From IMG/VR virus record IMGVR_UViG_3300031222_000520, positions 1 to 31,332 of that record: 31,332 nucleotides of DNA; one strand, given 5' to 3'. The notes under the pieces are model-generated. The model searched no databases, was not told where the DNA came from, and saw nothing but the letters and a program-made list of their open reading frames with translations. The translations under genes and the position numbers were made by a program. Of the stretch, positions 1,197-31,332 are shown in pieces. This stretch comes from a virus. Each line of letters opens with the position of its first letter. Position 1 is the first letter of the stretch.

Positions 1197-1201
1197 CCAA
1201 C

Positions 1202-3256: not shown

Positions 3257-3283
3257 CCGGGCATCCCAGAAAACTCACCTCTG

Positions 3284-3318: not shown

Positions 3319-3332
3319 CAAAGGATCCCGCA

Positions 3333-5415: not shown

Positions 5416-5500
5416 GCGAGCTCACCTGTTTTCGTCCCGTGGCGCGAGGCCAAACTTGCCGCGTTAGCTATTCTACAAAATTTTCCAAGGGAATAGTCGA

Positions 5501-5920: not shown

Positions 5921-5944
5921 CCCCGACAACCCAAGGAGAACACC

Positions 5945-11461: not shown

Positions 11462-11892
11462 CCTCCGCGGATCCCGAGCGTGTCATCGCCATCGCGCGGT
11501 CATGGCTCGGCACGCCGTACCATGACCAGGCCAGCCTCCGCGGCGTCGGCTGCGATTGCCTCGGGCTGGCCCGCGGCGTCTGGCGCGAGGTGGTCGGGCC
11601 AGAACCGTTCCCGATCCCGCCCTACAGCCGCGATTGGGGCGAGACCGGGCCGCGTGAGGTTCTTGAGGATGGCGCTCGGCGCATGATGCCGGAAATCACA
11701 CCTTCTGAGGCTGGCCCGGGCGCGCTGGTCCTCTTTCGCATGCAGCCCCGCGCCATCGCCAAGCATGTCGGGATCCTGACCGGGCCCGGCACCTTCCTGC
11801 ACGCCTATGAGCGCCTCGGCGTGATCGAAGAACCGCTCACCCCATCCTGGCGGCGGCGCATCGCCTTCGCCTTCCGCTTCCCACAACGCTGA
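11458..11892 (+). CDS. NlpC/P60 family cell-wall peptidase of the tail tip (GTA gp14-like)
   Basis: A 144-residue NlpC/P60 hydrolase (TIGR02219 type) carried at the tail tip, expected to cut peptidoglycan cross-links during DNA entry. The catalytic Cys34 is in GCDCLGLA, the probable catalytic His103 is in AKHVGIL, and a third polar residue may be His115 in FLHAYE. LGTPYHDQASLRGVGCDC is the typical family N-terminal block. The start is GTG 11458 in a GTGA overlap with the hub gene. Confidence 0.9.
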   Translation: MTSADPERVIAIARSWLGTPYHDQASLRGVGCDCLGLARGVWREVVGPEPFPIPPYSRDWGETGPREVLEDGARRMMPEITPSEAGPGALVLFRMQPRAIAKHVGILTGPGTFLHAYERLGVIEEPLTPSWRRRIAFAFRFPQR

Positions 11893-11901
11893 GATCCCCA
11901 C

Positions 11902-15870: not shown

Positions 15871-15878
15871 GGACCGCT

Positions 15879-16955
15879 ATGTCCGACACCACGACCAATC
15901 TGCTACTGCCCTACATCCTCGCGGCGCAGGCCCAGAAGCATGTCACCCATAACGAGGCGCTTCGGCTGCTCGACGGGCTCGTCCAGCTTTCCGTCCTCGA
16001 CCGAGACATGACCGCGCCGCCCGGCAGCCCTGCAGATGGCGACCGCCATATTGTGGCGAGCGGCGGGACCGGTGACTGGATGGGGTGGGACCTGAACGTG
16101 GCGCTGTACACGGATGGGACCTGGCTGCGCCTACCGCCCCGGGCGGGCTGGCGTGCATGGGTTGAGAACGAGGGGCTGCTGCTGGTCTACGATGGCGCGG
16201 GTTGGATTGGCACCACGCCGACAGATGTGCAGAACCTTGGGCTGCTCGGACTCGGCACGACAGCCGATGCCGCCAACCCGTTCTCCGCCAAATTGAACGC
16301 GGCGCTCTGGACCGCAAAGACCGTGGCCGAAGGCGGGACCGGCGATCTGTTCTACACCATGAACAAGGAAGCGGCGGGCGACGATCTCGGCATGACCCTG
16401 CAGAGCGGTTTCGTGACAAAGGCGCTCGTCGGGCTGTTTGGCTCCGAAAGGTTCCGCCTCGCTGTTTCGGCCGACGGCAGCACCTTCTTCGACGGTCTGA
16501 TCGTGGACAACGCCACCGGCATCGTCGAGCAGCCGCAACTGCCGCGTTTCAAGGCTTACACGAACTATGACAACTACGTGGGCGTTGGAGCCTGGACAAA
16601 GATCGGCCTGAATAACACCGACTACAACGACCAAGGCGCATTCGATGCTGGGACCAGCCTGTTCACCGCACCTGTGGACGGAGCATACCTGTTCGGCGCA
16701 ACGCTGCTCTACAAGATCAACGCCAGCGCCACGGCCCGGATGCGAGGACGGTTGGTGCTGAACGGCGCATCCGAAATCCGGGGGTCGTTTGGGGAGATCT
16801 CCGCCACCCATGTCTCGCTCGCCACCGCCATCTGGCTGCAGACCATGGTGCCGCTCACCGCGGGCGATACCGTGGAGCTGCAGGGGTATTTCCGGGTCGC
16901 GGACGGATACTTCGCAGCCGACCACACGTCCTTCTGGGGCTGCAAGGTCGGTTGA
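15879..16955 (+). CDS. DUF2793 protein with C1q-like C-terminal domain, receptor-binding candidate
   Basis: A 358-residue protein. Residues 1-115 are a DUF2793 domain (NLLLPYILAAQAQKHVTHNE and GDRHIVASGGTGDWMGWD), which in this phage group usually attaches side fibres or receptor-binding parts to the tail. The middle (120-220) is a linker with a possible trimerising segment. Residues 225-358 look like a C1q/TNF-type jelly roll: LFTAPVDGAYLFGATLLY, RGRLVLNG, MVPLTAGDTVELQGYF and a final FWGCKVG. The C1q call is by pattern only. It follows the megatron gene by eight bases and is the best candidate for host recognition. Confidence 0.75.
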   Translation: MSDTTTNLLLPYILAAQAQKHVTHNEALRLLDGLVQLSVLDRDMTAPPGSPADGDRHIVASGGTGDWMGWDLNVALYTDGTWLRLPPRAGWRAWVENEGLLLVYDGAGWIGTTPTDVQNLGLLGLGTTADAANPFSAKLNAALWTAKTVAEGGTGDLFYTMNKEAAGDDLGMTLQSGFVTKALVGLFGSERFRLAVSADGSTFFDGLIVDNATGIVEQPQLPRFKAYTNYDNYVGVGAWTKIGLNNTDYNDQGAFDAGTSLFTAPVDGAYLFGATLLYKINASATARMRGRLVLNGASEIRGSFGEISATHVSLATAIWLQTMVPLTAGDTVELQGYFRVADGYFAADHTSFWGCKVG

Positions 16956-16974
16956 GCGGCGGAAGGAGGATTCG

Positions 16975-17265
16975 ATGACACCACCCCGATCTGATCAGGG
17001 CTTCGTCCGCATGCCCGACGCCGAATTCGAGGCAATGCTGGCGCGGGCCGCCGAGAAAGGTGCCAAGCGCGCGCTCGCCGATGTCGGCCTCGATGGTGAA
17101 GAGGCGGCGCTCGATATCCGCGACCTACGATCCCTGCTCGACTGCATCCGGCTTGTGCGTCGCACCGCAATGCAGACCGCCGTCCGCATGATCACCACTG
17201 GCGTAATGCTGGCGCTACTTGCGGGCATCGCCATCAAACTCAAGATCTTCGGCGGCAGCCCATAG
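16975..17265 (+). CDS. DUF6127 family small membrane protein, possible holin
   Basis: A 96-residue protein with a helical, charged N-terminal part and one transmembrane helix near the C-terminus (about residues 72-90, MITTGVMLALLAGIAIKLKI). It resembles DUF6127 proteins found just before endolysin genes in alphaproteobacterial prophages. Position and a single hydrophobic helix make a holin or anti-holin role possible but unproven. GGAAGGAGG lies immediately upstream of ATG 16975, a very strong ribosome binding site. A terminator-like hairpin follows. Confidence 0.65.
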   Translation: MTPPRSDQGFVRMPDAEFEAMLARAAEKGAKRALADVGLDGEEAALDIRDLRSLLDCIRLVRRTAMQTAVRMITTGVMLALLAGIAIKLKIFGGSP

Positions 17266-17293
17266 CCGGGCTCAATCCCCAATCCATAAGCCC

Positions 17294-17322
17294 AACCGCA
17301 CCCGCCCATGTGGCGGTTTTTT
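17294..17322 (+). terminator. Intrinsic terminator between structural and lysis genes
   Basis: AACCGC (17294-17299) pairs with GCGGTT (17313-17318), or alternatively CCGCC (17302-17306) pairs with GGCGG (17312-17316) around a five-base loop. The stem runs into a TTTTTT tract (17317-17322). This is a standard Rho-independent layout and separates the tail operon from the lysis cassette, whose ribosome binding site follows. Confidence 0.65.
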
Positions 17323-17339
17323 CGTTTCTGGAGGACACC

Positions 17340-18014
17340 ATGACCACGACATTTTACGACCATTGGCGCGACGTGCCGGAAAGCACCTGGCGCTGGACCA
17401 CCTTTTCGCCCGCCGAAATCGCCTGCCGGGGCACCGGCAAGCTGCTGATCAACGAGCACGCGCTCGACAAGCTTCAGGCGCTGCGCGACCGTCTGGGGAA
17501 GCCGCTGATCGTCCGCTCCGCCTATCGGAGCCCGGAGCACAACCGCGCCGTCGGCGGCGCGACGCGTTCCAAGCACATGAACGGTGCGGCCTTTGACATC
17601 GCAATGTCGAACCATGACCCGGTCGTGTTCGAGGCGGCGGCGCGCTCGGTCGGTTTCCTCGGGTTTGGCTTCTATCCGCGCTCGGGGTTCATGCATGTCG
17701 ATCTTGGTCCAGCCCGCCAGTGGGGGGACCGTTTCGCGATCCGGGCGACGGCCTTCGGCGAGGACACGCCGCCCGCGCGCGAGGTTCTTGCTGAAAGCCG
17801 CACGATGAAAGGTGGCGGAGCGGCCGGGGTGGCGACGCTGGGCGCGGCGGGGGTCGAAGTCGCACAAAGCGTCCTGGCCGAGACCCAGTCCGCCGTCCTG
17901 CCACTGGTGCCATATCTCGACACGCTTCGTTGGGTGTTCATCGCCGTGGCGCTCGTTGGCATTGCGGTCACGATCTACGCCCGCCTCGATGATTGGAAGC
18001 GGGGGCAGCGATGA
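17340..18014 (+). CDS. Peptidase M15 endolysin with C-terminal membrane helix
   Basis: A 224-residue D-Ala-D-Ala carboxypeptidase-type (M15A) peptidase that cuts peptidoglycan for lysis. The zinc-site motifs are present: SPEHNRAVGGATRSKHMNG with His79, AFDI with Asp86, and MHVDLG with His119. After the catalytic domain (about 1-145) come an Ala/Gly-rich region and a transmembrane helix at about 196-214, followed by a basic tail. Endolysin may therefore stay membrane-anchored, or the helix may take over part of the holin role. ATG 17340 is chosen for the GGAGG six bases upstream; the longer frame begins inside the terminator hairpin. It overlaps the i-spanin gene as ATGA. Confidence 0.85.
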   Translation: MTTTFYDHWRDVPESTWRWTTFSPAEIACRGTGKLLINEHALDKLQALRDRLGKPLIVRSAYRSPEHNRAVGGATRSKHMNGAAFDIAMSNHDPVVFEAAARSVGFLGFGFYPRSGFMHVDLGPARQWGDRFAIRATAFGEDTPPAREVLAESRTMKGGGAAGVATLGAAGVEVAQSVLAETQSAVLPLVPYLDTLRWVFIAVALVGIAVTIYARLDDWKRGQR

Positions 18015-18268
18015 TCACCACCATTCTCGGCGGGACCACCGCCAACCCATGGGCGCGGGCCATTTTGCGCTACGGTGCCATCGCCGTCGCCATTGTCCTG
18101 TTCCTGCTGTCGATCCGCCGCTCCGGCGAGCGCGTTGGGCGGATCTCTGAACGTCTCGAAACCACGGAGAAAGTCAATGAAATCCAACGCCGGATGCTGG
18201 AGGCTACGGCTCGCCGTCCTCGCGATCGCGACGAGCTGGTTGACCGGCTGCGCGGCGGCGGGTTTTGA
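18011..18268 (+). CDS. i-spanin-like inner-membrane protein (Rz-like)
   Basis: An 85-residue protein with one N-terminal transmembrane helix (about residues 18-35, LRYGAIAVAIVLFLLSI) followed by a charged helical, probably coiled-coil, periplasmic part. This is the topology of an inner-membrane spanin subunit that fuses the two membranes at the last step of lysis. ATG 18011 overlaps the endolysin stop as ATGA. Its 3' third is overlapped in another frame by a lipoprotein gene, the classic Rz/Rz1 arrangement, which is the main support for this call. Confidence 0.7.
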   Translation: MITTILGGTTANPWARAILRYGAIAVAIVLFLLSIRRSGERVGRISERLETTEKVNEIQRRMLEATARRPRDRDELVDRLRGGGF

Positions 18269-18428
18269 GACCGGTGGCGTGGGCGCATGCCCGCCGATCG
18301 TGGAATACAGCAGGGAGCTGCAGGCGCAGGCGGCCGTGGAATTGGCGCTGCTGCCGGACGGATCGGCCGTTGTCGAGATGATGGGCGATTATGCGGTCAT
18401 GAGGGGTCAGGCGCGCTACTGCCAATGA
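18177..18428 (+). CDS. o-spanin-like outer-membrane lipoprotein (Rz1-like)
   Basis: An 83-residue lipoprotein starting inside the i-spanin gene in another frame (92-base overlap). A basic start and hydrophobic stretch lead to the lipobox LTGC with lipidated Cys25; the mature part contains ACPPIVEYSRELQ and ends YAVMRGQARYC. GGAGAA precedes ATG 18177. Two-component spanins consist of exactly such a pair. The stop is 13 bases from the stop of brxL on the other strand, with no clear terminator between them. Confidence 0.75.
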   Translation: MKSNAGCWRLRLAVLAIATSWLTGCAAAGFETGGVGACPPIVEYSRELQAQAAVELALLPDGSAVVEMMGDYAVMRGQARYCQ

Positions 18429-18441
18429 CGCGGCAAACCTA

Positions 18442-20538
18442 CTAGTCGGCAGTTTCAACCTTGTAGATATCGACCTTGGTCTCCAGGCATTTTCGGAGGC
18501 TTAGGTCACTTGCCCCAATCTCGAACCAACTTGCTGGCCGCTGGTAGAAATCAAGGCCTCGTCCAATCTTGATTACCCAACCGTTGTCCAGGCGGATTTC
18601 GCGGTCGTGCATATTTGGATTGAGCTTAACTTCAAGTACAACGTCTACTTCCAGCAAGCTTTGCTTCAAGTCTTCCAGCTTTTCATGAATTTCCGCGAGT
18701 TGGGTGTTGTCGTCATAACCTGTTATCAGATCGATCCTTTTTACCGTTCCTGACCTCAATACCGTTTCACAAAACCGAACAAAGTTTTGAATTTGGTGCT
18801 GAGGACGGATGTATGGATCCTCGATAATTACGGACTTCGCGCCGGTAAGATATGGACCAATTATTGACTCGTAACTGTGCCCTGTGTCCCCATACATGAT
18901 GGTAAAGTGTTGTTCTTGAACCTCCGGTATTATTGCCGCCGCCGCCCGCGGCGCTGACGGAGTTGGGCTGTTCAGAGCCTCTGGTGGACTGCCCGCCACC
19001 GCGACCACTGCTTCAGGCTGAACCGCTATCTCATCTGAAGCGCTTAACCTTCTCCGTGTTGGCTGTTGTGTCGCAGCTGCGTCTTTCGACTCAGGGCAGT
19101 ACACGACCACCTCTGTGCCGCCTGAATTAAAGTAAGACAGATTGATCAAGGCAAACTCATCGTCTGGTTTGCGCTTGTTCATCTGCTCCTTTACCCGGCG
19201 ACGGCATTCGGCCGCATACGCTACATACTCCTCGAACTCTTCATCACTCGGCGCGCCATCCGGATGAAGTATTTTTAAGAACGCCGCTACAGTTTTTTTG
19301 ATACCCTTCTCGTCGCGCCCGTCAACAGCTTTCCCAAGGCGAATGCGTCGATTCACCTCTTCATATCTATTCGTATGTTTGAATTGATAGTGAAATGCTT
19401 CAGCGAGGTAGTCAGTGATAAATCCATACCTGCTGGTTAAGAATGAACTGCTGTTTTTAGGAAATTCCCAGCCGGGAATATACGCGGCAAACCGGTCCAT
19501 TATCGCAAGATCAAGTTCTGGCGGCAGCGGCTGAAAGAGGTCATATTCTGTTGAGTTGACGACCTGGCTCACCGAGAGGTCGATGTTGCCGACAAAACTT
19601 AGACTGGCATCCGCAATGACTTCCGCGCCACGTGAAAACCGTCCATTCGCCATGAAATCCTTCATGATTTGGATCGTATCCGGATCACGGACCTTGATCC
19701 CCCCAACTTCGTCAAATGCCACGGTGTCCCAGTAGCCAACCAAGCCAACCTTACGACGAGCGTTGTTATAGAAGAGCGTCGCTTTTGTTACCTGACCGCC
19801 AGATATGAGCGTTGCGTAGGGCGAGAATTCACTGAAGAAATAAGACTTTCCGGTTCCGCGAGGGCCCAGCTCGATATAGTTATAGTTGGGCTCTACAAGG
19901 GGGGCCAACCGAGCGACAAAGTGCATTTGGACTCTTTGAGAAAGCTTGGACGGTTCCAAGCCAACCGATCTCATAATGACGTTGAGCCAATCATCTCGGG
20001 TGAACGCGCTTCGGCCATCTGCGTACTGCTGGAAGTCAAAGCGTGAAAGCTGAATCGGGCGCAGATCTTCAATGTAGAACGCGTAATCATCTTCCTCAAT
20101 GTCGTTATGTGAAAGCGTAACCTCGGCCCAAATTCCACCCTCGAGCAGCCGTTCATTATCCCGATAGAATTTTTCGCCAATCGCAATACGCTGAGAATTG
20201 AAGTTCTCCAGTGAAGCCCAGTGCCTTTTTTCCTTTTCAACGTAACGGACATGAACTTTGTCAATAAAACGATGTTTGCCTTTGGTTGCGACCTTCGACT
20301 GAGCTGCATTGGCTTCGTCAGGCCTTACGTAATTGTCCTGAAGCGTTGCAAGCACGGCTTCCATACCTGCGTCCATTTCTGCTTGGTCGTCGCTTGCGCA
20401 GTAGCGCGCCAAGAGAAACTCAAGCACGAATGTCGGTACGTTTGTGCCCTTCTTTATCCGATGAAGTAGATCTTTTCGAACAACCTTGCCATCGAAGGTT
20501 GACGTCAGGTGCTGGTCCAGTTCATCCATATCGTTCAT
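18442..20538 (-). CDS. brxL: BREX protein BrxL (AAA+) with C-terminal MITD1-like PLD-fold domain
   Basis: A 698-residue protein, last gene of the BREX operon. The N-terminal region (1-200, beginning DELDQHLTSTFDGKVVRKDL) and the AAA+ domain match BrxL: Walker A GPRGTGKS at 225-232, Walker B VAFDE at 273-277, then SFVGNIDLS. BrxL of type I BREX is a Lon-related DNA-binding AAA+ factor needed for phage restriction. I see no Lon protease Ser-Lys motif. After a disordered linker (about 485-540), residues 545-693 strongly resemble the phospholipase-D-like C-terminal domain of eukaryotic MITD1: EDPYIR (573-578), NFVRFCE, HDREIR (644-649), NGWVIKIGRGLD (652-663). The start overlaps the pglZ stop as ATGA. 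Confidence 0.9.
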   Translation of the reverse strand: MNDMDELDQHLTSTFDGKVVRKDLLHRIKKGTNVPTFVLEFLLARYCASDDQAEMDAGMEAVLATLQDNYVRPDEANAAQSKVATKGKHRFIDKVHVRYVEKEKRHWASLENFNSQRIAIGEKFYRDNERLLEGGIWAEVTLSHNDIEEDDYAFYIEDLRPIQLSRFDFQQYADGRSAFTRDDWLNVIMRSVGLEPSKLSQRVQMHFVARLAPLVEPNYNYIELGPRGTGKSYFFSEFSPYATLISGGQVTKATLFYNNARRKVGLVGYWDTVAFDEVGGIKVRDPDTIQIMKDFMANGRFSRGAEVIADASLSFVGNIDLSVSQVVNSTEYDLFQPLPPELDLAIMDRFAAYIPGWEFPKNSSSFLTSRYGFITDYLAEAFHYQFKHTNRYEEVNRRIRLGKAVDGRDEKGIKKTVAAFLKILHPDGAPSDEEFEEYVAYAAECRRRVKEQMNKRKPDDEFALINLSYFNSGGTEVVVYCPESKDAAATQQPTRRRLSASDEIAVQPEAVVAVAGSPPEALNSPTPSAPRAAAAIIPEVQEQHFTIMYGDTGHSYESIIGPYLTGAKSVIIEDPYIRPQHQIQNFVRFCETVLRSGTVKRIDLITGYDDNTQLAEIHEKLEDLKQSLLEVDVVLEVKLNPNMHDREIRLDNGWVIKIGRGLDFYQRPASWFEIGASDLSLRKCLETKVDIYKVETAD

Positions 20539-23063
20539 ACGGTATAATCCGTCTCAAGATTCAGCGCGCTTAGGCTCGCTAGAGTTGTTGGGTTCAGGGC
20601 CTTTATCGAGAATTTTCCCTCAAAGTCGGGATCCATTCGCAGCGCGATCTGCTTGCGCTGGCCCGGCGTCAACGTGATTGTCCGTGTTGCGGGGTTTACA
20701 TCACCACCTGCTCGCGGCTCACCAACCACATTCCCCTTTCCGTCCTGGGCTTCGATATGGACCTCGACACTTTCCTCTTGAGAAAACATGTCGTCAGAAA
20801 CCAATGCAATTTCCACTACTGGAACTCGTGTCGTAATTCGTTTCGCTCCGTTTTTGTAGCTGAGTTCGACACTCATTTTGGCGGCGCTCGAGTGCTCTTC
20901 ATTATCGAGGCGGGCAATGATCACAGGTACAACTGCCTCCGCCAAGGAAGCTCCGCCGTGGAAGTAAAGATGTCCAGCTCTGTAGGGAGCCATGCTCTTG
21001 GGGAGCGCGACCTGCGCAAAGCTGCCTCGAATACCAAGCTTCTGAGAGTTTAAAACAACACTGTGAGAGTCGCTGTTTCCATTTCCAAGCAGGGCCCTGT
21101 CATGCGCATTTATCGGCCAATTGCCTTGTGGCTTGGTGCAAACGTCACCGGCTGCAGCGTGACCGTTTAGAAAAAATCCATGATCGGTGACAATCACGGC
21201 CTCTTTGAACCCCATTCCACGCAACTTGTGCAGGGCGACACGAATGAGTTTCAAAGTGCTTGGTATCAAGCCGAGCGTGGTCTCAGGATTGCTTTCGAGC
21301 TGACTGTCGATCTCTGTCGATCGCAGCAACAGGAGATCAACGGTAGGCGTGATCTTTGGCTTTCCCCGAACAAAGTCGCTCAGAGGCATCTCTTGGAACC
21401 GATCACCGAGTTTCTTTCGAAGCACATCCATTCTCTGGGTGACGTTCCCAACCTTGGCAGTGCCAAGTTTTGGGGCCAGCGCGTCGCCTTCAATCTCGAG
21501 CGACAACTGTGTGCGGGCACCAGGAAGAAGGCTAGCCATACCGACAAGGGTTATCGTCGGCAATTGGGCATAGGCAGCTTGCAGCTCGACCGGCCCGTCT
21601 TCAGACAGCTGCTTTTCAAGTGTTACGCCGAGCTCATACCTCAGCGCGTCGACCATGAGGTAAGCAACTCTTCGTCCATTTTCTTTCAGTCGATCGGCCA
21701 GAAGTCGGTCATAGACGTCTGCATTGGCCAATCTGCCTTCTGGAGGCCAACCCACACCCTCAATGTGCTTAATGAAAATTGCTTGGACTTTTTCCGCCAG
21801 GCGACGATACCGGGACCGGGCCTGATCAATTACCTCGTGCATCATGCCGTGAGGGCCGAGAAAGTCACCAACCGCCTGCTCAAATTCGCGTTGAAGGCGG
21901 TCCACTTCTCGCAGGCTTCCAAGATAGAAATCCAGCAAATCTGCCTGGGATCGGGCGTGTTCCGGGAGCTGGCGTTCGTTGTCGTCGCAGCATTCGATGA
22001 GCGCTAGGCCAGTGCGGATCAATTCCCACTGCGCCTGGCTTTCACCTTTGCCGAGCCAGACGGAATTCTTGTGGCGGCTGATGATGCGGCGGGTCGTGTC
22101 AGTTTCGTTGGTCGAGATGCCCTTGATCGCCGCTTTGAGGAAGGTGCGCTCCTCGAAAGGGAACGTATCGCGATCGCCAAGATCATCGATGTTGCGGCAC
22201 TGCTCCGGTAGGGAGAGTTCAACCTCAATTGCCTCAGCGCGTTCAATGTAGATGTCCCGAGTTGCCGGATTGGTGCGAAGACGATCGCACACATCCTCGA
22301 CGATCGGCTTTGCTTCGATCGGTGAGTGAGGAACGCCGTCGAGAGACTCAGGCAAGGGAACCGGCAGATCAAAGACGAACTCGCTGAAGAGAACAAACCG
22401 CCAGAGTTCGTTGGCGATGAAACTCCAGGTCCGGCCGCTCGTCTTGACGCTCATACCCAAGGTCGCGCGCAGGAATTCTCGGGCTTCGTCGCTCCAGCCT
22501 TCTTGCGACTTGAGGGCGTCGGCTTGCTTGGCAGTCGGTGCCAAGAGTGCGGTCAGGATTTCGCGTCCTGACTCGACCCTCAGTGCGGCCCTCAGCTGTG
22601 GCCAGCTGGCACCACCGCCTATAGCATCAATCACAGGGAAGGACGGGCCATTGGGCGACCCTGCGAAGATTCGGCGTATTTCCGTTGCATGATCTGGCTG
22701 CGCGCGCAGGCATAGGCTCAGATAGTCGTCCCCATCGTCCTGGGGAAAGACCGCTCCGCTTTGCGCATAAATTGAGAAGGGGTCAGCCTGTTTTTCTTCA
22801 TCGGTTTCCGTACGTCTCTGCGGTACGTAGACCACCAGTGCATCAATCTCACGCTTCGCCTTGCCGACTTCGCGCAGTGCCATGATCGCTTCCTGGCGGC
22901 TCTCGATGCTGCTTTCAGAGGCGTCAATTACACGGATGCGGTCATCGCCAAGTCCCAAACACAGATCGTGGTACCGGTGATCGGGGTCATAGACGACCAT
23001 GCAGCCCGCTTGCAGAAGGCGGGGGCGCAAAACGGTGTCGCGGATGAAGGTGGCAATACTCAT
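20535..23063 (-). CDS. pglZ: BREX phosphatase-like protein PglZ
   Basis: An 842-residue PglZ protein, a core BREX component with an alkaline-phosphatase-superfamily domain. The metal-site motifs are visible: VDALRYE at 471-477 after a hydrophobic strand, and VIVTDHGFFLNG (TDHGF at 626-630). A Thr in LPTITLVGMASLLPG (about 501-515) is the likely nucleophile. The N-terminal 450 residues are the helical PglZ-specific region, and the last 120 are a beta-rich C-terminal domain (VPVVEIALVSDD and LTPGQRKQIALRMDPDFEG). It begins inside the stop of the nuclease gene (ATGA) and ends inside the brxL start. Its precise activity in BREX is not settled. Confidence 0.93.
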   Translation of the reverse strand: MSIATFIRDTVLRPRLLQAGCMVVYDPDHRYHDLCLGLGDDRIRVIDASESSIESRQEAIMALREVGKAKREIDALVVYVPQRRTETDEEKQADPFSIYAQSGAVFPQDDGDDYLSLCLRAQPDHATEIRRIFAGSPNGPSFPVIDAIGGGASWPQLRAALRVESGREILTALLAPTAKQADALKSQEGWSDEAREFLRATLGMSVKTSGRTWSFIANELWRFVLFSEFVFDLPVPLPESLDGVPHSPIEAKPIVEDVCDRLRTNPATRDIYIERAEAIEVELSLPEQCRNIDDLGDRDTFPFEERTFLKAAIKGISTNETDTTRRIISRHKNSVWLGKGESQAQWELIRTGLALIECCDDNERQLPEHARSQADLLDFYLGSLREVDRLQREFEQAVGDFLGPHGMMHEVIDQARSRYRRLAEKVQAIFIKHIEGVGWPPEGRLANADVYDRLLADRLKENGRRVAYLMVDALRYELGVTLEKQLSEDGPVELQAAYAQLPTITLVGMASLLPGARTQLSLEIEGDALAPKLGTAKVGNVTQRMDVLRKKLGDRFQEMPLSDFVRGKPKITPTVDLLLLRSTEIDSQLESNPETTLGLIPSTLKLIRVALHKLRGMGFKEAVIVTDHGFFLNGHAAAGDVCTKPQGNWPINAHDRALLGNGNSDSHSVVLNSQKLGIRGSFAQVALPKSMAPYRAGHLYFHGGASLAEAVVPVIIARLDNEEHSSAAKMSVELSYKNGAKRITTRVPVVEIALVSDDMFSQEESVEVHIEAQDGKGNVVGEPRAGGDVNPATRTITLTPGQRKQIALRMDPDFEGKFSIKALNPTTLASLSALNLETDYTV

Positions 23064-24868
23064 GCGTTTTCCCTTAGGCCGAGAATTGACTTGACCTCTT
23101 TGACTAAAACTTCTGAACGCTGTGAGATCGCTTCTTCAGTCCACTCAGACCTTTGAGCAAGAAAGGCATTCAAATACAGGCCGTTCCGGTATCCGATGAA
23201 GTCGCCAGATTCGTTTTTTCTGTCGCGTTTTCTTGAATATTCCATCGTGCCAAGTTTCGAATTGTATCCGCTAAGGGTGAGATTTCCGAGGTTATGTGCA
23301 CAGCGTTGTCTTATCGCGTAGGATGTATCTTTCCCGTTTGCCTCGAGCATCGTGACCCAGCCAGCTGCAAGATTTTCGGTCTTTGGCAATATATGTTCTA
23401 CCGTAAACACTGGCCGCCCGTGGGAGTCTTGGGCCCAAAGATCGCGTTTCGTTTCTTTGGTCTGGTGGGTTTCTTCGAGCTTGCAGAGCATGAAGCGAGT
23501 TGCTTCATAGTTTTCGAGATACACGTCCCCTAGTAGTCGAGCATCACAGATTTCCTCTGACGGTGCCCTTTGGAGGAGCCACGCCCGCGTTCGTTCAATA
23601 AAATCAGATAATCCATTGAACTTGCCACTGCGCAGATCGACTAGAAGGTCGTTGACCAACTCCATAAACATGGGATCGAGATCACGCGTCGCCGGTGTGT
23701 CTGTCAAATTTCTCCAAAAGAACCAGCGAGTTAAATACGCTGCTGTCTGCTGGAGAGCATGCCCCTCATCCCATTCCTGGCTTTTCGCGACCTGACTGAC
23801 CCACACAAGGAAAGCGTAGGCGGGCGCGGCTCCCAGACGGTGGAGATCTTGAAGTGCCAAGCTAGTGGCATCCCCCCATTTTTCCTTGGCATCGACTGGA
23901 TTGATCAACGCAGAATAGGTTTTTGCCTTGTCCTGGAGCTGTTGGAACACCCAGACCGGACGCCTGCGCAAGAGAGTGTCGTAAATAGTAATCAAGTTGG
24001 AGCGCGTCGCCCTTGAGCATCCTTTCACTTCAACCGACTTGAGGTATTTGAACATGTTGTAGAGGTGTCGAAGGAAGCGTTCCTGCACCGCAGGTTCTGG
24101 CAGAAGGCCGATCAAATCCTTCCACTCCTCGAACGCTCGATCGATGCCGTATTCTTCGCGCTTGTCGAGCTCGGCCAAGAGGTTGTTCTTGATGATATCA
24201 ATCGCGGAAAGCGGAATGCCGCGATTATTTATGGTCTCGAATAGAACGAATGCGTCAGAATGGCTTGGGACCTCAATTTTTACGAGGATCGCGGCCTTGA
24301 GCTTATCCAGAAGGGCGACGGTTTGGTCGTCGCTAAGAGCTTCGAGGCGGTCCGTGAAATAGGCATAGGCCTTAGCAATGCGCCGATTGCCGAAGTTCTT
24401 CAGGCCCTTGGGCGCGGATACCTGCTGGGGAAACAGATCGCTGAGGATCCGTTGAAAGTCGGCCTTGTTCTGGGCCTGTTCACTGGGCTCGAAGCGCCAC
24501 GTCTTCGTTCCCTTGAGGAAGATTCGGTTCTTAAGGTTCACCAACTCAACCGTCAGATCGTCATCAGGATTGGGATGGGTCTTAAGCTTACTATAGAGCG
24601 CACAAAACAGCAGGCTGATGGTCGTGAACCGCTGTTGTCCATCGATCAGCTCCAACCTATTGCCCGCCATCGAGTCTTTTTGGCTATTCACGCAAATAAT
24701 CGAGCCGAGGAAATGGCCACTTGGCGAATCCTCGAGGTCATTGAACAGGGCTTCCCAATTGTCGCGCCGCCAAACGTACTCGCGTTGATACTTCGGAATG
24801 AAGAAGCTGTGGGGTAAGTCTGGATTAAAATAGTGACTGATAGGGTCGTCTTTAACGCTGCTGATCAT
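23060..24868 (-). CDS. DUF262-DUF1524 nuclease (GmrSD / BrxU-like) inside the BREX operon
   Basis: A 602-residue protein. The N-terminal DUF262 (ParB-like NTPase) domain shows IPKYQREYVWRRDNWEALFNDL and the ELIDGQQRFTTISLL block with the DGQQR motif. The C-terminal DUF1524 HNH-type nuclease domain shows VEHILPK (His492) and HNLGNLTLSGYNSKL (about 525-539). This is the architecture of type IV restriction enzymes GmrSD and BrxU, which cut DNA carrying modified bases in a nucleotide-dependent way. ATG 24868 (MISSVKDD) is chosen because it overlaps the previous stop as ATGA and because sequence upstream in this frame is only the shadow of pglX. It lies between pglX and pglZ, cotranslated with both. 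Confidence 0.87.
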   Translation of the reverse strand: MISSVKDDPISHYFNPDLPHSFFIPKYQREYVWRRDNWEALFNDLEDSPSGHFLGSIICVNSQKDSMAGNRLELIDGQQRFTTISLLFCALYSKLKTHPNPDDDLTVELVNLKNRIFLKGTKTWRFEPSEQAQNKADFQRILSDLFPQQVSAPKGLKNFGNRRIAKAYAYFTDRLEALSDDQTVALLDKLKAAILVKIEVPSHSDAFVLFETINNRGIPLSAIDIIKNNLLAELDKREEYGIDRAFEEWKDLIGLLPEPAVQERFLRHLYNMFKYLKSVEVKGCSRATRSNLITIYDTLLRRRPVWVFQQLQDKAKTYSALINPVDAKEKWGDATSLALQDLHRLGAAPAYAFLVWVSQVAKSQEWDEGHALQQTAAYLTRWFFWRNLTDTPATRDLDPMFMELVNDLLVDLRSGKFNGLSDFIERTRAWLLQRAPSEEICDARLLGDVYLENYEATRFMLCKLEETHQTKETKRDLWAQDSHGRPVFTVEHILPKTENLAAGWVTMLEANGKDTSYAIRQRCAHNLGNLTLSGYNSKLGTMEYSRKRDRKNESGDFIGYRNGLYLNAFLAQRSEWTEEAISQRSEVLVKEVKSILGLRENA

Positions 24869-26784
24869 TCGCTGGCCCTCTTGCGGCCGCGGGCCTTTGT
24901 GAGTTTGGGTTCTGGCTCGACGTAGAGGTGCTCCAGATCGTGGGCGATGGCCAGCGACTTGTCGGTCAGGCACTTTTCGCGCACGCGGTCGGGCCAATAG
25001 GCCATGGCGAGGTGGGCCCAGTCGTAGTCGCCCTTTTCCAGCTTGGCCCAGGTGTCTTTCAGGATCTTTTGCCAGGGCTTGTGGCGGAACAGCTGCCAGA
25101 GCGGGGCGGCGGTGATCTGGACGCCGTCGTCGTGGTTCGGGCGATAGGATTGGGCGATTGCCAACAGGGTGTCGCGCAGCTCGATCAGTTCGAGCTCGAG
25201 GGTCTGGAGCGACTCGAACGTTTTCTCGTCATCGCGGGACCGAGTGCTGCCTTTGGTGCGCAGGGCGGCGACGTCCTGACCGACCTGCTTCAGCTTCGGC
25301 TCGATGAAGTCGTTGACGGCGGTGAAGAGGGTCTGGTCGGTCAGGCTGGGGTAGTAGAGCCAGAGCGTGTAGCTGCCCGAACTGGTCGAGATTGGCCAGT
25401 AGATCGGGGCCATGCGGCGGCTCTTGCTGTGTTGCCTCAGGTGCAGGGGAAAGAAGTCGCGCTGCAACCAGCGGCGCACATCGGCGGGAACCGGGGCTTC
25501 GACGCAGGCGAGCACTTCCTCGATTAAGCGGGCGAGGTCATTCGGATGACCTTGGTCGGCCACCAGAATGCCGGAATGGGCATGGAATGGTTCAGCACCA
25601 TCAGGCAGCATGCCGGGGCTTTTGGCAGGCAGCGGGTCAAAGGGTTCTGGCTCAGGCGGAGCTTCGCGTTCGCCGGTGGCCAAGTGCCAGTCGAAACGGC
25701 CGAAAGCCACTCCAGCGGCCCAGCTGAGCAGACCATCGGTCTGGTCGACTGCAGTGGGGCTGTCGTCATCTTCGTTATCGTCTGCGTTCTCAGCTTCGTC
25801 GCTGTCTTCTTCGTCTGTCGAACTGGACGAACCAAGCGCTGCGGCACGGTCTGCGTCGCTGAACCCGTAAAGGTCAAAGGCGATGTCATCGATCTCGGCC
25901 TGGATTTCCGCCAGCTCGACGCCAATGCACGGCGGATCGTATTCACCGAGGTGCGACATTAAGTCAACCGGTAAAACAAATGCTAGCGAGGTTTCATTTG
26001 TTTGATCTAACTTGCGCTTCAGAGACCAAGATCGAAGACTTAACCTGGAGAGTCGATCTGCATCTACTTTTCCGATCTTCGGCACAGGCGTTCTTAGGAT
26101 CACTCCGGCTTCATAAGACCCCACAGCGATTTGAAGGCTGACAAGAAAGGAATACGCAGCACTATTTGCTATAGCCATTGTGTTAAGCAATTGGTTGGCG
26201 TCGTTTTCAGGCAAGAATACTGTCGGCCCTTTGTCAGAAAATATGCATCCTTCTGGAAGTGCTCGAAAGGAAAGGCCCTTTGCCGACCGGCGCGACCAAG
26301 TAAAGCCAGGACGGAAAAAATATGACTTAATTGTATCTGGCAGCATCCAAATGTTGGATTTAGTTTTTCCCGATTTTGGATTGAGAATTGCAAGCATCTG
26401 GGTTTGACCATGGCCCCAGCTAACCAAGAGATGAATAGAACCATAAAATTTGGAATATGCGCCTCCCTTGGAGAAAAACTTCCAATTTGGAGTGCGCGAG
26501 TAGTCAACTTCCCATATAAGTCTGACAAATCTGAAGTCGTCAGCAGTAGCTAGTCCTTGTCTTGCCTCCAAACCTTCCTCCGAGGCTGTTCTGAAGACTT
26601 CAAAAGATTCTCGGACTGCACTGCTAACCCAATAAGCAAATGGTGCCCCAGGGATTTTGTTGAACTCCGATGGCTCAATTGCAGAAGCACAAGCAGGGCT
26701 TCCGCCGCTTCTAATATCATTAGAAGCCTTTGAAAGAGCCGCGCCTTTTTCAGATTCATTCAATAGCCGCAAAAAAATCGTCAT
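24865..26784 (-). CDS. pglX: PglX second part: target-recognition and C-terminal region
   Basis: A 639-residue ORF encoding the portion of PglX that follows the methyltransferase core. Residues 1-20 (TIFLRLLNESEKGAAL) resemble the segment just after the catalytic domain. Residues about 30-270 look like a target-recognition domain, ending in AYSFLVSLQIAVGSYEAGV and RTPVPKIGKV. Residues about 318-341 are a run of Ser, Asp and Glu. The rest has the PglX C-terminal hallmarks YWPISTSSGSYTLWLYY, PLWQLFRHKPWQ and YWPDRVREKC. The start at 26784 overlaps the first ORF's stop as ATGA, with GGAG eight bases upstream. A T7 tract falls at codons 3-5. The recognition part has lower GC than the flanks. Confidence 0.85.
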   Translation of the reverse strand: MTIFLRLLNESEKGAALSKASNDIRSGGSPACASAIEPSEFNKIPGAPFAYWVSSAVRESFEVFRTASEEGLEARQGLATADDFRFVRLIWEVDYSRTPNWKFFSKGGAYSKFYGSIHLLVSWGHGQTQMLAILNPKSGKTKSNIWMLPDTIKSYFFRPGFTWSRRSAKGLSFRALPEGCIFSDKGPTVFLPENDANQLLNTMAIANSAAYSFLVSLQIAVGSYEAGVILRTPVPKIGKVDADRLSRLSLRSWSLKRKLDQTNETSLAFVLPVDLMSHLGEYDPPCIGVELAEIQAEIDDIAFDLYGFSDADRAAALGSSSSTDEEDSDEAENADDNEDDDSPTAVDQTDGLLSWAAGVAFGRFDWHLATGEREAPPEPEPFDPLPAKSPGMLPDGAEPFHAHSGILVADQGHPNDLARLIEEVLACVEAPVPADVRRWLQRDFFPLHLRQHSKSRRMAPIYWPISTSSGSYTLWLYYPSLTDQTLFTAVNDFIEPKLKQVGQDVAALRTKGSTRSRDDEKTFESLQTLELELIELRDTLLAIAQSYRPNHDDGVQITAAPLWQLFRHKPWQKILKDTWAKLEKGDYDWAHLAMAYWPDRVREKCLTDKSLAIAHDLEHLYVEPEPKLTKARGRKRASE

Positions 26785-28670
26785 ACCTGCTTCTCCAGCG
26801 TATATGCGGCAGCTTCAACCCAAGCGTCGTCCATCACCCCTAAGCCGAGGTCAGCAACTACTTCTGGCCGTGCAATGCCAAGTACTATTTCTTCCCGCCA
26901 TTTTTGAAAGCTCGTTAGGTAGAAGCAGGTTCGGGAGGTTATAGCACCAAGCCGAGACTCTGCTCGCATTAGCTGTAAGCCGCGCTCGACGAAAATTGCG
27001 AGTAGATCATTTTTACTTTTGGGATACGCCGTGGTCATTTCCGCCTTGGTTCCCGCCGCCATAGCGCCAAAGGGTGGATTCATCACCACCACGTCATACA
27101 CTTCGCGGCAGTGGTCGATCATCCGCAGCCCTTGAAGCGCATCCTCTGCGAACAACCGCCCCTGATAGGTGGACCGTGCCGCGCGGGCGAACTCGGTCAG
27201 GGCTTTACTCAGACGCGCCTCAGCCTTCTGCCACTGCGCCATGTCCTCTTCGCGGAAGAGATCGCCATGCTCGCCGAAGACCGCGCGCACAAGCGCAGGC
27301 AACTCCTTCTCAACCTGCAACAGTACGCCAAGTTCTGGCAGGCCCTTGAGCAGGAACAGCGTCTTCTCGAACAGCTCTGCATCCAGGGGATCGAGCTCTT
27401 CCATGAACCGCTTGCGCAGGTCCACCTCGGCCGGGGGCGCGACCGCCGCCACCACATGTCCACGGCCCACCTGGGGCCGGTCCTTGGCCTTCGCGCCCGC
27501 CTCATGCCAGGCGCGCTGCGCCCGCAGCCACAGCGCCAGCGACGCGATCTGCGCCGCGCGTGGGTCGATGTCGACGCCATAGATGTTGTGTTCGATGATC
27601 AGCCGCGGCACGTCGTGCAGGAACGCGTCCTGGTCGGCATAGGTCTGGCTGAGCGGTTTCAGGTCCGCGCTGCCGCCGGTTTCAGAGTCCAGACAGCCGG
27701 GCCCATTGGTCTGCTCCCAAGCCCAAGCCTCGCGATAAATCTCGAGGAACAGATCGAAAGCATAGAGCCCGAAATGCATCGACCCACAGGCCGGATCGAG
27801 CAGCTTGATCGTGCGCGGGTCGCGCAGGCGTTTGGCCGGTTCGGGCTGCTCGTCCGGTTTCACCAGCAGGTATTGGCAGCGGTCGCGCAGGCCGGTTTGC
27901 CCGCCCGTCCAGTTGAACCAGAGCCGCCCCAGCGTGTTGTCGACCAAGAACTCCACCACATAACGCGGCGTGAAGAACTGGTTGCGCACCGCCAGCTCAC
28001 GGCTGTTGCGCGGCGCCTGGGACGCATCGCGCATCGCTTTGCGCTCTTCCTTCGAGTTGAAGTACTGGTAGATCCAGCCGATCGTCTCATCCTCGGCCCA
28101 GAGCGGTTCGATCTCGCCATGGTTCATGAGGGTAAGGACCTGCATGAGCGCGGCCTCACGCGGGAACAGGCGGCCCTGGGGGGAGAAGCGGTCGAAGAGG
28201 CCGGGCAAATCCTGCGAGAGCTCGTCAAAGACGCTCTGGAGATAGACGCGGTAGGCGTCGCCGGTTTCGCCGAGGCCGGTGCCAGCCAGGCGGGCATAAA
28301 GCTGGAAGCCTTTGGCCTGGTAGCCGTTCCCGACGGATTCCATCAGCAGCCCGCGAGCTTCAGCCATCCTGAGAGCCGCGAGGCGGTTCAGGACGGTGAA
28401 GGCCTGTTCGCGCACGATGCGGTCAAGGCCAGCCTTTGTGTCGGTGTCCGCGTTGGCACAGTAGTGGGCCAGCGTATCGCGCAGGATCCGCGCCGTCTCG
28501 CGCTGTTGGTCGTTGATGTGGCGCAGGCTTTCGAGCGGGGAGGCCGTGCCGGAAATCGGATCCAGCCCGTAATCGTTCTGGAGCTGACGGGTGAATTCCT
28601 CTTCCAAAGTGCGGCGGGCATCGGTGACGAAGCGCTGGAGGCGGTTACGGGTGGACTGATCAAACGCCAT
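26781..28670 (-). CDS. pglX: PglX first part: adenine-specific methyltransferase core
   Basis: A 629-residue ORF with the N-terminal and catalytic regions of PglX, the BREX methyltransferase that marks host DNA. SAM-binding motif I is DPACGSMHFG at 292-301, preceded by QFFTP (231-235) and followed by IYGVDIDP (363-370). Catalytic motif IV is NPPF at 531-534. It ends shortly after VMDDAWVEAAAYTLEK, where typical PglX proteins of about 1,200 residues continue into the recognition domain. Together the two ORFs total 1,268 residues, a full-length PglX. A stop two bases after brxC and GGAG before the ATG show tight linkage. The last 90 codons share the low GC of the next ORF's first half. Confidence 0.88.
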   Translation of the reverse strand: MAFDQSTRNRLQRFVTDARRTLEEEFTRQLQNDYGLDPISGTASPLESLRHINDQQRETARILRDTLAHYCANADTDTKAGLDRIVREQAFTVLNRLAALRMAEARGLLMESVGNGYQAKGFQLYARLAGTGLGETGDAYRVYLQSVFDELSQDLPGLFDRFSPQGRLFPREAALMQVLTLMNHGEIEPLWAEDETIGWIYQYFNSKEERKAMRDASQAPRNSRELAVRNQFFTPRYVVEFLVDNTLGRLWFNWTGGQTGLRDRCQYLLVKPDEQPEPAKRLRDPRTIKLLDPACGSMHFGLYAFDLFLEIYREAWAWEQTNGPGCLDSETGGSADLKPLSQTYADQDAFLHDVPRLIIEHNIYGVDIDPRAAQIASLALWLRAQRAWHEAGAKAKDRPQVGRGHVVAAVAPPAEVDLRKRFMEELDPLDAELFEKTLFLLKGLPELGVLLQVEKELPALVRAVFGEHGDLFREEDMAQWQKAEARLSKALTEFARAARSTYQGRLFAEDALQGLRMIDHCREVYDVVVMNPPFGAMAAGTKAEMTTAYPKSKNDLLAIFVERGLQLMRAESRLGAITSRTCFYLTSFQKWREEIVLGIARPEVVADLGLGVMDDAWVEAAAYTLEKQV

Positions 28671-28672
28671 CC

Positions 28673-31332
28673 TTACTCCTCACTGCCGAAGCTGAATGAG
28701 ACTTCGATCTCGTCGTAGAGCGCGAGCTGGGCTTTGATCTCGTTGAGCTTGAGGATGAGGGCATCCAGGTCGGCGGCCGTTGTCATTTTGGTTGGCACAG
28801 AAACCGATTGCTCGAACTTGGCCGGTCCCTTCTTGCCCGTCTCAGCGCGCTCGTCCTCGATCCGCTGGCGGATGCGTTCCTGGCCTTGTCGCTGGATCGA
28901 GCGCCGGAGCTCGTCGATTGTACTGCTAATGTCATAGTCACGGGCAAGCAGCTTGCGCAGCCCCGCAAGGTCGAGGGTCGCAGTCAGTTCAAGACCGTCC
29001 AGCTGGCCAATGGTGCTGCCACGCTCTTCCTGGGTCAACTCCCCCCATTCAGGCACGCGTTGAAGCTCCTCCGCACCTTCCTTGATGCGCTGTTTTTGCT
29101 GGTCTGAAAGCGAGATTACAGCCTCACGGACCCGGCCTTTGACATGCGTGAGCAGCGAACTGAAGTCCGCACTATGCTTGAAGAAATCCTCAGTTCTGAG
29201 GCGTTCGGAGAGTGCCGACAGATCTTCGCTTAGCTCGTTCCGCAGCTCACCCGGAACGCCTGTATCCGGGAGCGCTTCGATATCTTGGCGGTGCGACTGC
29301 AGTTCGCGCAGGGTTCCATCAAGGCCATTTTCCAGCGAACGCTTCACCTCAAGTGCCCATTTGAGGTTGTCGAAGAGTGCAGACGTCTCCGCACCGAGGC
29401 GTTGTGGCGCGTCTGAGGCGTCGGTGAACAGGACGTCCGCGAGCTCCTGGTTCATCACCCGGACACGGTCGCCTCCGGCAAGCCCCAAACCGCTGAGCTT
29501 CTCTCCCAACGAGCCGTAGTCGTGTTGGGAACGTGGGAAATGCTTTGCCGCGGCTTTGCTGATTTCCTGTTCAAGCGGAATGACAATGTCGCCGATCAAC
29601 TCGGTCAGTCGATCTGCCGCCCGGCCAAGCGTTTCGTTGGACGGATGCTCATCTCGAAGGGCAACTCCAATCTGTTTGAACGAATTGTTTGTCTTGAGCG
29701 CGTCGATGGCTTGCTGACCAGCGGCAGTCACCTCTCGACCGGAGACTTTCAGTTTAATCTCTCCGGCCATCAGCATGGCCGCAAGAATGTAGCGGGTCGT
29801 GTCAGGCGACCACCCAAAAGGATCGCTACTGAAATCGTCGAGAAGCCGCTTCCCATCGACGGTGCCGCGTTTGTCGATGTAGTCCCGAATGCTTGTCATC
29901 GCCTTGTGGTCGGTCTTGAATGACGCTCGACCGGCGGTGGTTTGAACGAGGCTAAGCGGATCAATGCCGCTGCTTATGGCAGCGGGATTTGCCACCTTCA
30001 GGAATTTCTCAGCAGTATCGGTACCTGCGCGCACGGGCGCTTCGACGTAGCGATCGAACACCTGCGTCGCCACGTCATTCAGGAGCTTTTTGGCGGCATC
30101 CAGCAGATTGGGATCTAGAGCAGATACAGCTGTCGCCTGGCCACGAAAGACGAACGATCCAGCTTGGAGCGTTTGCTTGATCTTGCTTTGAAGTTGCGTG
30201 GCCAGCTTAGCTGCCCTGTCCAATTGGCCAGAACAGTAGTCGCGTACCTCCTGGTCAGGTTCGTTTCGATGAAGTTCCGCTATGCGTTGGCACCGATAGA
30301 TATCGTTTGCCAAATCGTCCATTTCTGGATTGGAGCGAGCAAGCAGGCCGATGATGTTCCGCCCGGTACGACTTCGAGAATCGTCGAGCATCCTATTGCG
30401 CGCTGCGTCGTAGTCAGTGGCGGCCACCAACTCCAGGACCGTCTGGACGGTGTTTTGGTCTCCAGCAAGGCTTGTTACGGCACTGCCAGATTGAACTTTG
30501 ATCCCGGATGCAACAGCCAAAGTCCCGTGGAGGCTGACCCTTGGCAAAGGGTCGAATACTTCACGCACAGAGTCGCTGAAGATCCGCCGGACATCAACGG
30601 AGCGTAGGGCCAGCGCTCCACGCTCTTGCTCGATGTCGCGAAGTTTCTCGCTCAAGAAGACAAGGTTTCCGTCCTTTTCTCCGAGCGGAACCAACACGTC
30701 GCCCAGCATCTCATCAACAGCTTCTTTCACTTTGTTGAGTTGGGACGCTGAGGTGATTGAGGGATGCATCAAGCTCGCGACATTTTGCACACTGACCGGC
30801 AAATTCCCGAGGATCTGGAGAACAGCGACAGATTTTGCGATGTCTTGATGAAGGTCGCCGTCAGGAAAGCGAATGAGCACCTTCCCAACGGCCTGATGCA
30901 CTGACGGAAAAGCCCGTCGAATGTCCTTCTCAAGCTCGTCATAGAGCGTAACGGTCGTAGCGAGCCAGCCAACCGGCTGATTTGCCATGGCGGTCGTTCC
31001 ACCTTCACCCTTCAGAACATCCTGAATGACCTTGATGGCTGATCTCAGGCCAATGCCGCCGGTCGACTTGGCCAGCGCACCGAGCAAATGGAGAAGAATG
31101 TCAAAGTGCACGGGGAGGAACGGGTACAGGTTTGTGAACGTCTCACGGCTGAAGTCGGCATCGTAGTATTTTGCGTCTTGAAGCCTCGTGTTGTGTCGCA
31201 GCGCTTGACCATGCGCGTCAAACAATTTCCCAAGTTGATCTTCACCGCTGGGCGATTTCCCAAGTAGTCGACGATAGCAGATTTCCTTGATGTCGCTGGA
31301 TTCCAGATCAATCTGAATCGGAAATCGATCCT
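28673..31332 (-). CDS. brxC: BREX ATPase BrxC, 5' end outside the window
   Basis: The frame is open to the window edge, so at least 885 residues of the protein are present. A TTG at 31225 is not the start; the frame continues upstream with FPIQIDLESSDIKEICYRRL, the segment that follows the ATPase sensor region in BrxC. Walker A and B lie beyond the edge. Visible family features are LYPFLPVHFDILLHLLGA, GLRSAIKVIQDVLKGE and VGKVLIRFPDGDLHQD, and long helical, probably coiled-coil, segments in the last 300 residues. BrxC is the large P-loop protein essential for BREX methylation and defence. pglX follows after two bases; brxA and brxB are expected upstream. Confidence 0.88.
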   Translation of the reverse strand, partial: DRFPIQIDLESSDIKEICYRRLLGKSPSGEDQLGKLFDAHGQALRHNTRLQDAKYYDADFSRETFTNLYPFLPVHFDILLHLLGALAKSTGGIGLRSAIKVIQDVLKGEGGTTAMANQPVGWLATTVTLYDELEKDIRRAFPSVHQAVGKVLIRFPDGDLHQDIAKSVAVLQILGNLPVSVQNVASLMHPSITSASQLNKVKEAVDEMLGDVLVPLGEKDGNLVFLSEKLRDIEQERGALALRSVDVRRIFSDSVREVFDPLPRVSLHGTLAVASGIKVQSGSAVTSLAGDQNTVQTVLELVAATDYDAARNRMLDDSRSRTGRNIIGLLARSNPEMDDLANDIYRCQRIAELHRNEPDQEVRDYCSGQLDRAAKLATQLQSKIKQTLQAGSFVFRGQATAVSALDPNLLDAAKKLLNDVATQVFDRYVEAPVRAGTDTAEKFLKVANPAAISSGIDPLSLVQTTAGRASFKTDHKAMTSIRDYIDKRGTVDGKRLLDDFSSDPFGWSPDTTRYILAAMLMAGEIKLKVSGREVTAAGQQAIDALKTNNSFKQIGVALRDEHPSNETLGRAADRLTELIGDIVIPLEQEISKAAAKHFPRSQHDYGSLGEKLSGLGLAGGDRVRVMNQELADVLFTDASDAPQRLGAETSALFDNLKWALEVKRSLENGLDGTLRELQSHRQDIEALPDTGVPGELRNELSEDLSALSERLRTEDFFKHSADFSSLLTHVKGRVREAVISLSDQQKQRIKEGAEELQRVPEWGELTQEERGSTIGQLDGLELTATLDLAGLRKLLARDYDISSTIDELRRSIQRQGQERIRQRIEDERAETGKKGPAKFEQSVSVPTKMTTAADLDALILKLNEIKAQLALYDEIEVSFSFGSEE

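What the first reader, a model, noticed from the sequence alone, without database searches (positions are those of the whole stretch)
18442..20538. BrxL carries a C-terminal domain strikingly like eukaryotic MITD1 (PLD-like fold)
Residues 545-693 share with the human MITD1 C-terminal domain, as I recall it, an EDPYIR block, a HQ..NF.RFCE helix, HDREIR, NGW.IKIGRGLD and a final C.ET.VDI. The order and spacing are the same. In MITD1 this domain binds membranes in cytokinesis. A membrane-, lipid- or nucleic-acid-binding PLD-like module on the BREX effector AAA+ would suggest how BREX acts on incoming DNA at the envelope. No Lon Ser-Lys protease signature is visible. A Pro/Ala-rich linker separates the two parts, as expected of a module fusion.
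Basis: partly seen in the sequence, partly recalled or inferred. Interest (0 to 1): 0.72.

Follow-up and report, generated by a model that had tools for sequence, protein, structure and literature searches.

The report
BREX effector tail resembling human MITD1
A bacterial anti-phage protein (BrxL, from a BREX system) ends in a domain about half identical to the membrane-binding domain of the human cell-division protein MITD1; BrxL proteins with such a nuclease-like tail are already described, but the link to MITD1 is not in the papers I could search, and it makes an ancient bacterial-defence origin and a hidden enzyme activity of MITD1 testable.

Summary
ORF 18442-20538(-) is a 698-aa BrxL (BrxL_N plus AAA+), and residues 553-693 match the full Pfam MIT_C profile (E 2.5e-51). 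They match human MITD1 directly (E ~1e-36, 47-48% identity). The predicted fold superposes on MITD1 crystals (TM 0.93, 1.1 A), then on other PLD-superfamily proteins. No Lon fold is seen. The architecture is not rare: MIT_C occurs in about 3% of 1632 sampled genomes in five phyla, roughly four-fifths fused to BrxL. [quoted passage not shown] That is almost certainly this domain, so the fusion is known. The survey does not mention MITD1. What I add: H644, R646, Q582, N585, R578, R660-GLD663 and R682 are near-invariant across 144 domains, and human MITD1 keeps all of them (only D651 becomes N). In trees MITD1 groups with the window-type BrxL tails, excluding the other BrxL tails (100/99). The best mechanism is a PLD-type DNase carried by the DNA-loaded BrxL ring, not an envelope-binding module. 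Side finding: this BREX is prophage cargo.

The parts
18442..20538 (-). BrxL, 698 aa, with MIT_C (PLD-like) C-terminal domain
   Evidence: PADLOC BrxL PDLC02508 full length
20110..20499 (-). BrxL_N domain, residues 14-143
   Evidence: E 6.9e-45
19150..20079 (-). BrxL AAA+ ATPase domain, residues 154-463 (Walker A GPRGTGKS 225-232, Walker B VAFDEV 273-278)
18910..19098 (-). Pro/Ala-rich linker, residues 481-543
   Evidence: composition; pLDDT <50
18460..18882 (-). MIT_C / PLD-like domain, residues 553-693, homologous to human MITD1 C-terminal domain
18586..18609 (-). H-x-R-x4-D motif HDREIRLD, residues 644-651 (PLD HxKx4D-like)
   Evidence: H644 and R646 each 99% of 144 domains, D651 92%
18550..18564 (-). 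GRGLD motif, residues 659-663
   Evidence: G661, L662, D663 invariant, R660 99%
20535..23063 (-). PglZ
   Evidence: (PDLC02561 full length)
23060..24868 (-). GmrSD-family type IV restriction enzyme (BrxU-like), about 602 aa, accessory gene between PglX and PglZ
   Evidence: GmrSD_N E 9.2e-40, GmrSD_C E 2.5e-17; same position in relatives
24865..26784 (-). PglX C-terminal half as a separate ORF
26781..28670 (-). PglX N-terminal half (Eco57I methylase)
28673..31330 (-). BrxC, 5' end cut off by the contig end

Best explanation
This is a Type-1 BREX BrxL in which the catalytically dead Lon-like tail of the best-studied BrxLs is replaced by a single-motif PLD-superfamily domain of the MIT_C (MITD1) family. 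Proposed mechanism: the N-terminal and AAA+ domains assemble as an ATP-dependent ring on invading DNA, and the linker-tethered PLD halves pair (within or across the stacked rings) to form composite H-R-D active sites that cut the enclosed phage DNA, alongside the PglZ nuclease. Shown here: the domain identity, the fold, conservation of the putative active-site residues, and the conserved BREX operon. Known from a relative (PMC10164562): DNA-loaded double rings whose tails meet at the equator. Inferred: pairing of the PLD halves, DNA cleavage, and timing.
For: MIT_C and BrxL matches. AlphaFold2 domain model with pLDDT 90; Foldseek puts MITD1 first (TM 0.93), then PLD-superfamily proteins, with the PLD-type restriction enzyme NgoAVII R protein at rank 35 (TMq 0.53, E 0.083). 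H644/R646/D651 plus Q582, N585, R578, R660-D663 and R682 are conserved in 144 domains. In 132 of 147 MIT_C ORFs the BrxL body is in the same ORF. The BrxC-PglX-PglZ-BrxL order is conserved. An independent published reading is 'BrxL-HKD', 1030 of 2913, HRD motif. In Acinetobacter BrxL the tails join two rings around DNA.
Against: The canonical Lys is Arg and the GSxN element is absent, so activity is not guaranteed. The only experimentally studied relative, human MITD1, is described as membrane-binding. No nuclease assay exists in the papers I could read. BrxL is dispensable for restriction in some Type-1 systems, though those with Lon-type tails do not test this domain. That the survey's HKD domain and MIT_C are the same domain is inferred; its supplements were not available.
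Confidence: 0.62

Rival explanations
1. Membrane-docking module: the MIT_C tail binds acidic phospholipids as MITD1 does, and places the BrxL ring at the envelope where phage DNA enters.
For: 47-48% identity to MITD1, whose PLD-fold domain binds membranes and whose membrane binding is needed for abscission (PMC6015221). One bacterial MIT_C is fused to a dynamin-family GTPase (L013).
Against: The conserved positions are PLD-type motif residues. The operon is a DNA-restriction system. Other fusions are to an MZB helicase-like protein, IF2_N and Sel1 repeats, none membrane-specific.
Confidence: 0.12
2. Structural replacement: the MIT_C tail is catalytically inert and only dimerises, doing the ring-to-ring joining that the dead Lon domain does in Acinetobacter BrxL, or binds DNA or phosphate without cutting.
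For: Lon-type tails mediate tail-to-tail joining. Lys to Arg and loss of GSxN. PglZ already supplies nuclease activity (PMC12205998, seen as title and abstract only).
Against: A purely structural domain need not keep H, R, Q, N, R and D near-invariant across 144 divergent domains and in human MITD1.
Confidence: 0.22
3. The MITD1 resemblance is only a shared PLD fold (convergence or very distant homology), with no special relation between MITD1 and BREX.
For: MIT_C also occurs outside BrxL. Only one eukaryotic sequence was at hand.
Against: Direct sequence E ~1e-36 and hhalign probability 100%. MITD1 groups with the window-type tails to the exclusion of all other bacterial MIT_C domains sampled, 100/99.
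Confidence: 0.04

Closest known systems
BrxL with C-terminal HKD-endoDNase (NAR 2026 gkag035, PMC12839542; first report credited there to Li et al. 2025, NAR gkaf357)
   Same: Same AAA+ body, a PLD-type tail replacing LonP, Lys-to-Arg 'HRD' motif, Type-1 BREX operon
   Different: The survey names it an HKD nuclease and does not mention MIT_C or MITD1; identity of the two domains is inferred from position, fold and motif
Human MITD1 C-terminal domain (PDB 4a5z, 2ymb)
   Same: Fold (TM 0.93), 47-48% identity, all pocket residues except D651 (Asn in MITD1)
   Different: Carries an N-terminal MIT domain that binds ESCRT-III; no AAA+; acts in cytokinesis
Acinetobacter BrxL (PDB 8emc, 8emh)
   Same: N-terminal and AAA+ domains, about 45% identity over residues 6-472
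   Different: Tail is an inactive Lon-like domain that joins two rings; no detectable similarity to MIT_C
PLD-type restriction nucleases such as NgoAVII R protein (4rct)
   Same: PLD fold (TMq 0.53, Foldseek E 0.083), DNA restriction role
   Different: Canonical HKD motif (own knowledge); not detectable by sequence from this domain

Membership tests
BrxL (Type-1 BREX) | BrxL_N plus BrxL AAA+ domain with Walker A and B | tested here: met
   motifs; TIGR02688 479 bits, above its 329.3 cut-off
BrxL (Type-1 BREX) | Encoded with BrxC, PglX and PglZ | tested here: met
   BrxA and a WYL regulator seen in the relative L181
BrxL (Type-1 BREX) | C-terminal Lon-like domain (TIGR02653); defines the Lon-type subgroup only | tested here: not met
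   TIGR02653 aligns only 5-484 and scores 549.6, below its 628.25 cut-off; fold search shows PLD, not Lon
MIT_C (PF16565) | Full-length profile match above gathering score | tested here: met
   173.8 bits against 25, positions 1-142/142
MITD1 | N-terminal MIT domain before MIT_C | tested here: not met
   no MIT domain in P0001
MITD1 | Membrane or phosphoinositide binding by the C-terminal domain | not testable with these tools
   needs a lipid-binding assay
PLD superfamily nuclease | PLD fold | tested here: met
   model pLDDT 90, top Foldseek hits MITD1 and PLD-superfamily proteins
PLD superfamily nuclease | Canonical HxK(x)4D(x)6GSxN | tested here: not met
   HxR(x)4D then GRGLD; H and D positions kept, Lys replaced by Arg, GSxN absent
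PLD superfamily nuclease | Phosphodiesterase activity on DNA | not testable with these tools
   no assay
Lon protease | Ser-Lys dyad and Lon P-domain fold | tested here: not met
   no motif; no Lon in fold search

The most novel reading that the evidence does not exclude
The C-terminal domain of eukaryotic MITD1 descends from the bacterial anti-phage lineage of BrxL tails (or from a domain shared with it), was tied to ESCRT-III by an MIT domain, and still has a working phosphate-binding or phosphodiesterase pocket, so MITD1 would be a domesticated phage-defence effector and might act on nucleic acid or lipid in the midbody.
Probability: 0.3. Interest if true: 0.8.

Novelty: new member of a known kind. 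Interest (0 to 1): 0.52.

Why it matters
How BREX stops phage is still open. This tail gives about a third of Type-1 BrxLs a plausible built-in nuclease with exact residues to mutate (H644, R646, D651, D663). Recognising it as the same domain family as MITD1 lets the two solved MITD1 structures guide BREX work. In the other direction, it asks whether MITD1's near-complete PLD-type pocket is active, and adds a candidate to the list of eukaryotic proteins with parts traceable to bacterial immunity.

Tried and rejected
Lon-like protease tail: rejected by profile, fold and shuffle tests. Chance or composition effect: rejected by 2000 shuffles. A rare one-off fusion: rejected by the survey. Gene transfer agent island: the phage half of the window has GTA-like tail genes, but with lysis genes and, in Roseivivax, an integrase beyond the BREX operon it reads as a prophage. 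A single fusion event for all MIT_C-BrxLs: neither shown nor rejected (bodies of groups A and B held together, p-AU 0.48). Sequence search for other PLD relatives in the PDB with the domain profile: only MITD1 is significant. Full-length AlphaFold2 model: poor outside the tail (mean pLDDT 50.5), so no ring model was attempted. Viral structure library: only weak generic PLD matches. Phage genome collection: no MIT_C match. The MITD1 structure paper and Li et al. 2025 are not in the library. The first phylum search failed until genome handles were obtained.

Full report
The protein. The minus-strand ORF 18442-20538 encodes 698 aa without interruption. Pfam places BrxL_N at 14-143, the BrxL ATPase at 154-463 and MIT_C at 553-693, the last over all 142 profile positions at E 2.5e-51. 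NCBIfam calls it BrxL by TIGR02688, while the Lon-type BrxL model TIGR02653 stops at residue 484 and stays below its cut-off. PADLOC already holds a 698-position BrxL model that covers it end to end.

The MITD1 resemblance. phmmer against the PDB finds two relatives: Acinetobacter BrxL for residues 5-473 and human MITD1 for residues 546-693 at E about 1e-36. Controls: the real tail scores 135 bits against MITD1, the best of 2000 shuffles 7.9, and ten Lon-type BrxL tails at most 2.3. An AlphaFold2 model of the domain alone, built from 39 bacterial sequences without templates or MITD1, has pLDDT 90. Foldseek puts five MITD1 chains first (TM about 0.9, rmsd 1.1-1.5 A), then phosphatidylserine synthase, PLD1, PLD3 and vaccinia F13, with the PLD-type restriction nuclease NgoAVII R protein lower (rank 35, E 0.083); no Lon protease appears.

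How common it is. Relatives were found in 24 plasmids, 30 IMG/VR contigs (29 of 30 with the BrxL body in the same ORF) and 80 listed of 150 bacterial genome loci spanning Pseudomonadota, Cyanobacteriota, Chloroflexota, Acidobacteriota, Chlorobi, Bacillota and Thermodesulfobacteriota. In searches with PF16565 itself, excluding the centre genomes, 49 of 1632 sampled genomes of five phyla are over the cut-off: Chloroflexota 5/399, Pseudomonadota 6/398, Bacteroidota 25/394, Cyanobacteriota 12/243, Acidobacteriota 1/198. About four-fifths of these are BrxL fusions. The rest sit on an MZB (DUF1998-type) helicase-like protein, Sel1 repeats, short standalone proteins and a weakly matching family of about 305 aa; plasmid copies add a dynamin-family GTPase and an IF2_N protein. 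The set of 147 ORFs is biased toward BrxL because part of it was fetched with a BrxL tail.

What is already known. A January 2026 survey (PMC12839542) states that 1030 of 2913 Type-1 BREX BrxLs have the inactive LonP domain replaced by an HKD-endoDNase with Lys changed to Arg, and credits an earlier 2025 report. Position, fold and the H-x-R-x4-D motif make it nearly certain that this is the same domain, although its supplements could not be opened. MITD1, MIT and ESCRT are not mentioned in its main text, and no paper in the library holds both BrxL and MITD1. Pfam and NCBI names already put the bacterial and eukaryotic domains in one family, so the link exists in databases but, as far as I could search, not as a stated finding.

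Active-site residues. In 144 aligned domains H644 and R646 are each 99% conserved, D651 92% (Asn in most others), Q582, G661, L662, D663 and R682 100%, and N585, R578, W654 and R660 99%. Human MITD1 keeps all of them except D651, which is Asn. This is what one expects of a functional pocket rather than of a spacer. The canonical Lys and GSxN are absent, so activity is a prediction.

Evolution. In three trees human MITD1 groups with the window-type tails (group A) and apart from the other BrxL tails (group B), at 99/92, 100/99 and 100/99. Group A itself is separated from MITD1 at 98/92, 88/70 and 97/86. The trees are unrooted, and only one eukaryotic sequence was available. The BrxL bodies of A and B each form a group among Lon-type BrxLs once a few long or doubtful rows are left out, and whether A plus B is one group is unresolved (p-AU 0.48). 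The breadth of the domain in bacteria favours a bacterial origin of MITD1's domain, but this is inference.

Mechanism. In Acinetobacter BrxL, rings assemble on DNA with ATP and the C-terminal domains meet at the equator of the double ring around the enclosed DNA (PMC10164562). PLD enzymes with a single motif work as pairs (own knowledge). The simplest model is that MIT_C halves pair there and cut the enclosed DNA. Fold, residues, fusion and operon are shown; pairing and cutting are inferred.

Context. The operon reads BrxC (cut by the contig end), PglX as two ORFs with a 4-bp overlap, a GmrSD enzyme, PglZ, BrxL. It lies tail to tail with the late genes of a prophage, as described under things noticed.

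Noticed in passing
window 1-18428 versus 18442-31330; L021, L023, L002, L003, L181: The BREX operon looks like prophage cargo: portal, protease-capsid fusion, tape measure, GTA-type tail and megatron, DUF2793 fibre, M15 lysin and Rz-like gene end 13 bp from the BrxL stop codon; GC drops from about 66% to 51-57% over most of the operon. The same junction is in Roseivivax lentus and Marivita lacus genomes, and in Roseivivax an integrase gene lies just beyond the WYL regulator and BrxA, so the whole BREX sits between integrase and lysis genes.
   Followed up: partly
L005, L006, L007: Window-type BrxL operons also abut a different phage module (endolysin in L005, tail proteins phrog_1101, phrog_778, phrog_1082), so this BREX lineage has been picked up by at least two prophage types.
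   Followed up: partly
window 24865-28670; many of L010-L098: PglX is split into two ORFs with a 4-bp overlap; split and fused PglX occur mixed among group-A relatives, so splitting seems recurrent.
   Followed up: partly
window 23060-24868; L022, L024, L029, L031, L035, L036, L039, L046, L047, L089: A GmrSD (BrxU-like) type IV restriction gene of about 602 aa sits at the same slot between PglX and PglZ in a subset of loci.
   Followed up: partly
L013:7634-10477: MIT_C at the C-terminus of a dynamin-family GTPase in Thiodictyon syntrophicum plasmid pTs485.
   Followed up: no
L108:1-1920: MIT_C at the C-terminus of a very long ORF (1993-aa open frame) with an MZB domain, reminiscent of DISARM/Mrf helicases.
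   Followed up: no
L143, L144, L159, L160: A family of about 305-aa bacterial proteins with a weak MIT_C match after about 150 unknown residues, keeping a D-x-Y and (H)DR-type motif.
   Followed up: no
L012:8331-10450: Hymenobacter sp. BRD67 carries a decayed BREX in which BrxL is broken into pieces and MIT_C stands as a separate ORF.
   Followed up: no
L048, L049: Tepidimonas fonticaldi has two near-identical BrxL-MIT_C BREX loci about 22 kb apart on one contig.
   Followed up: no
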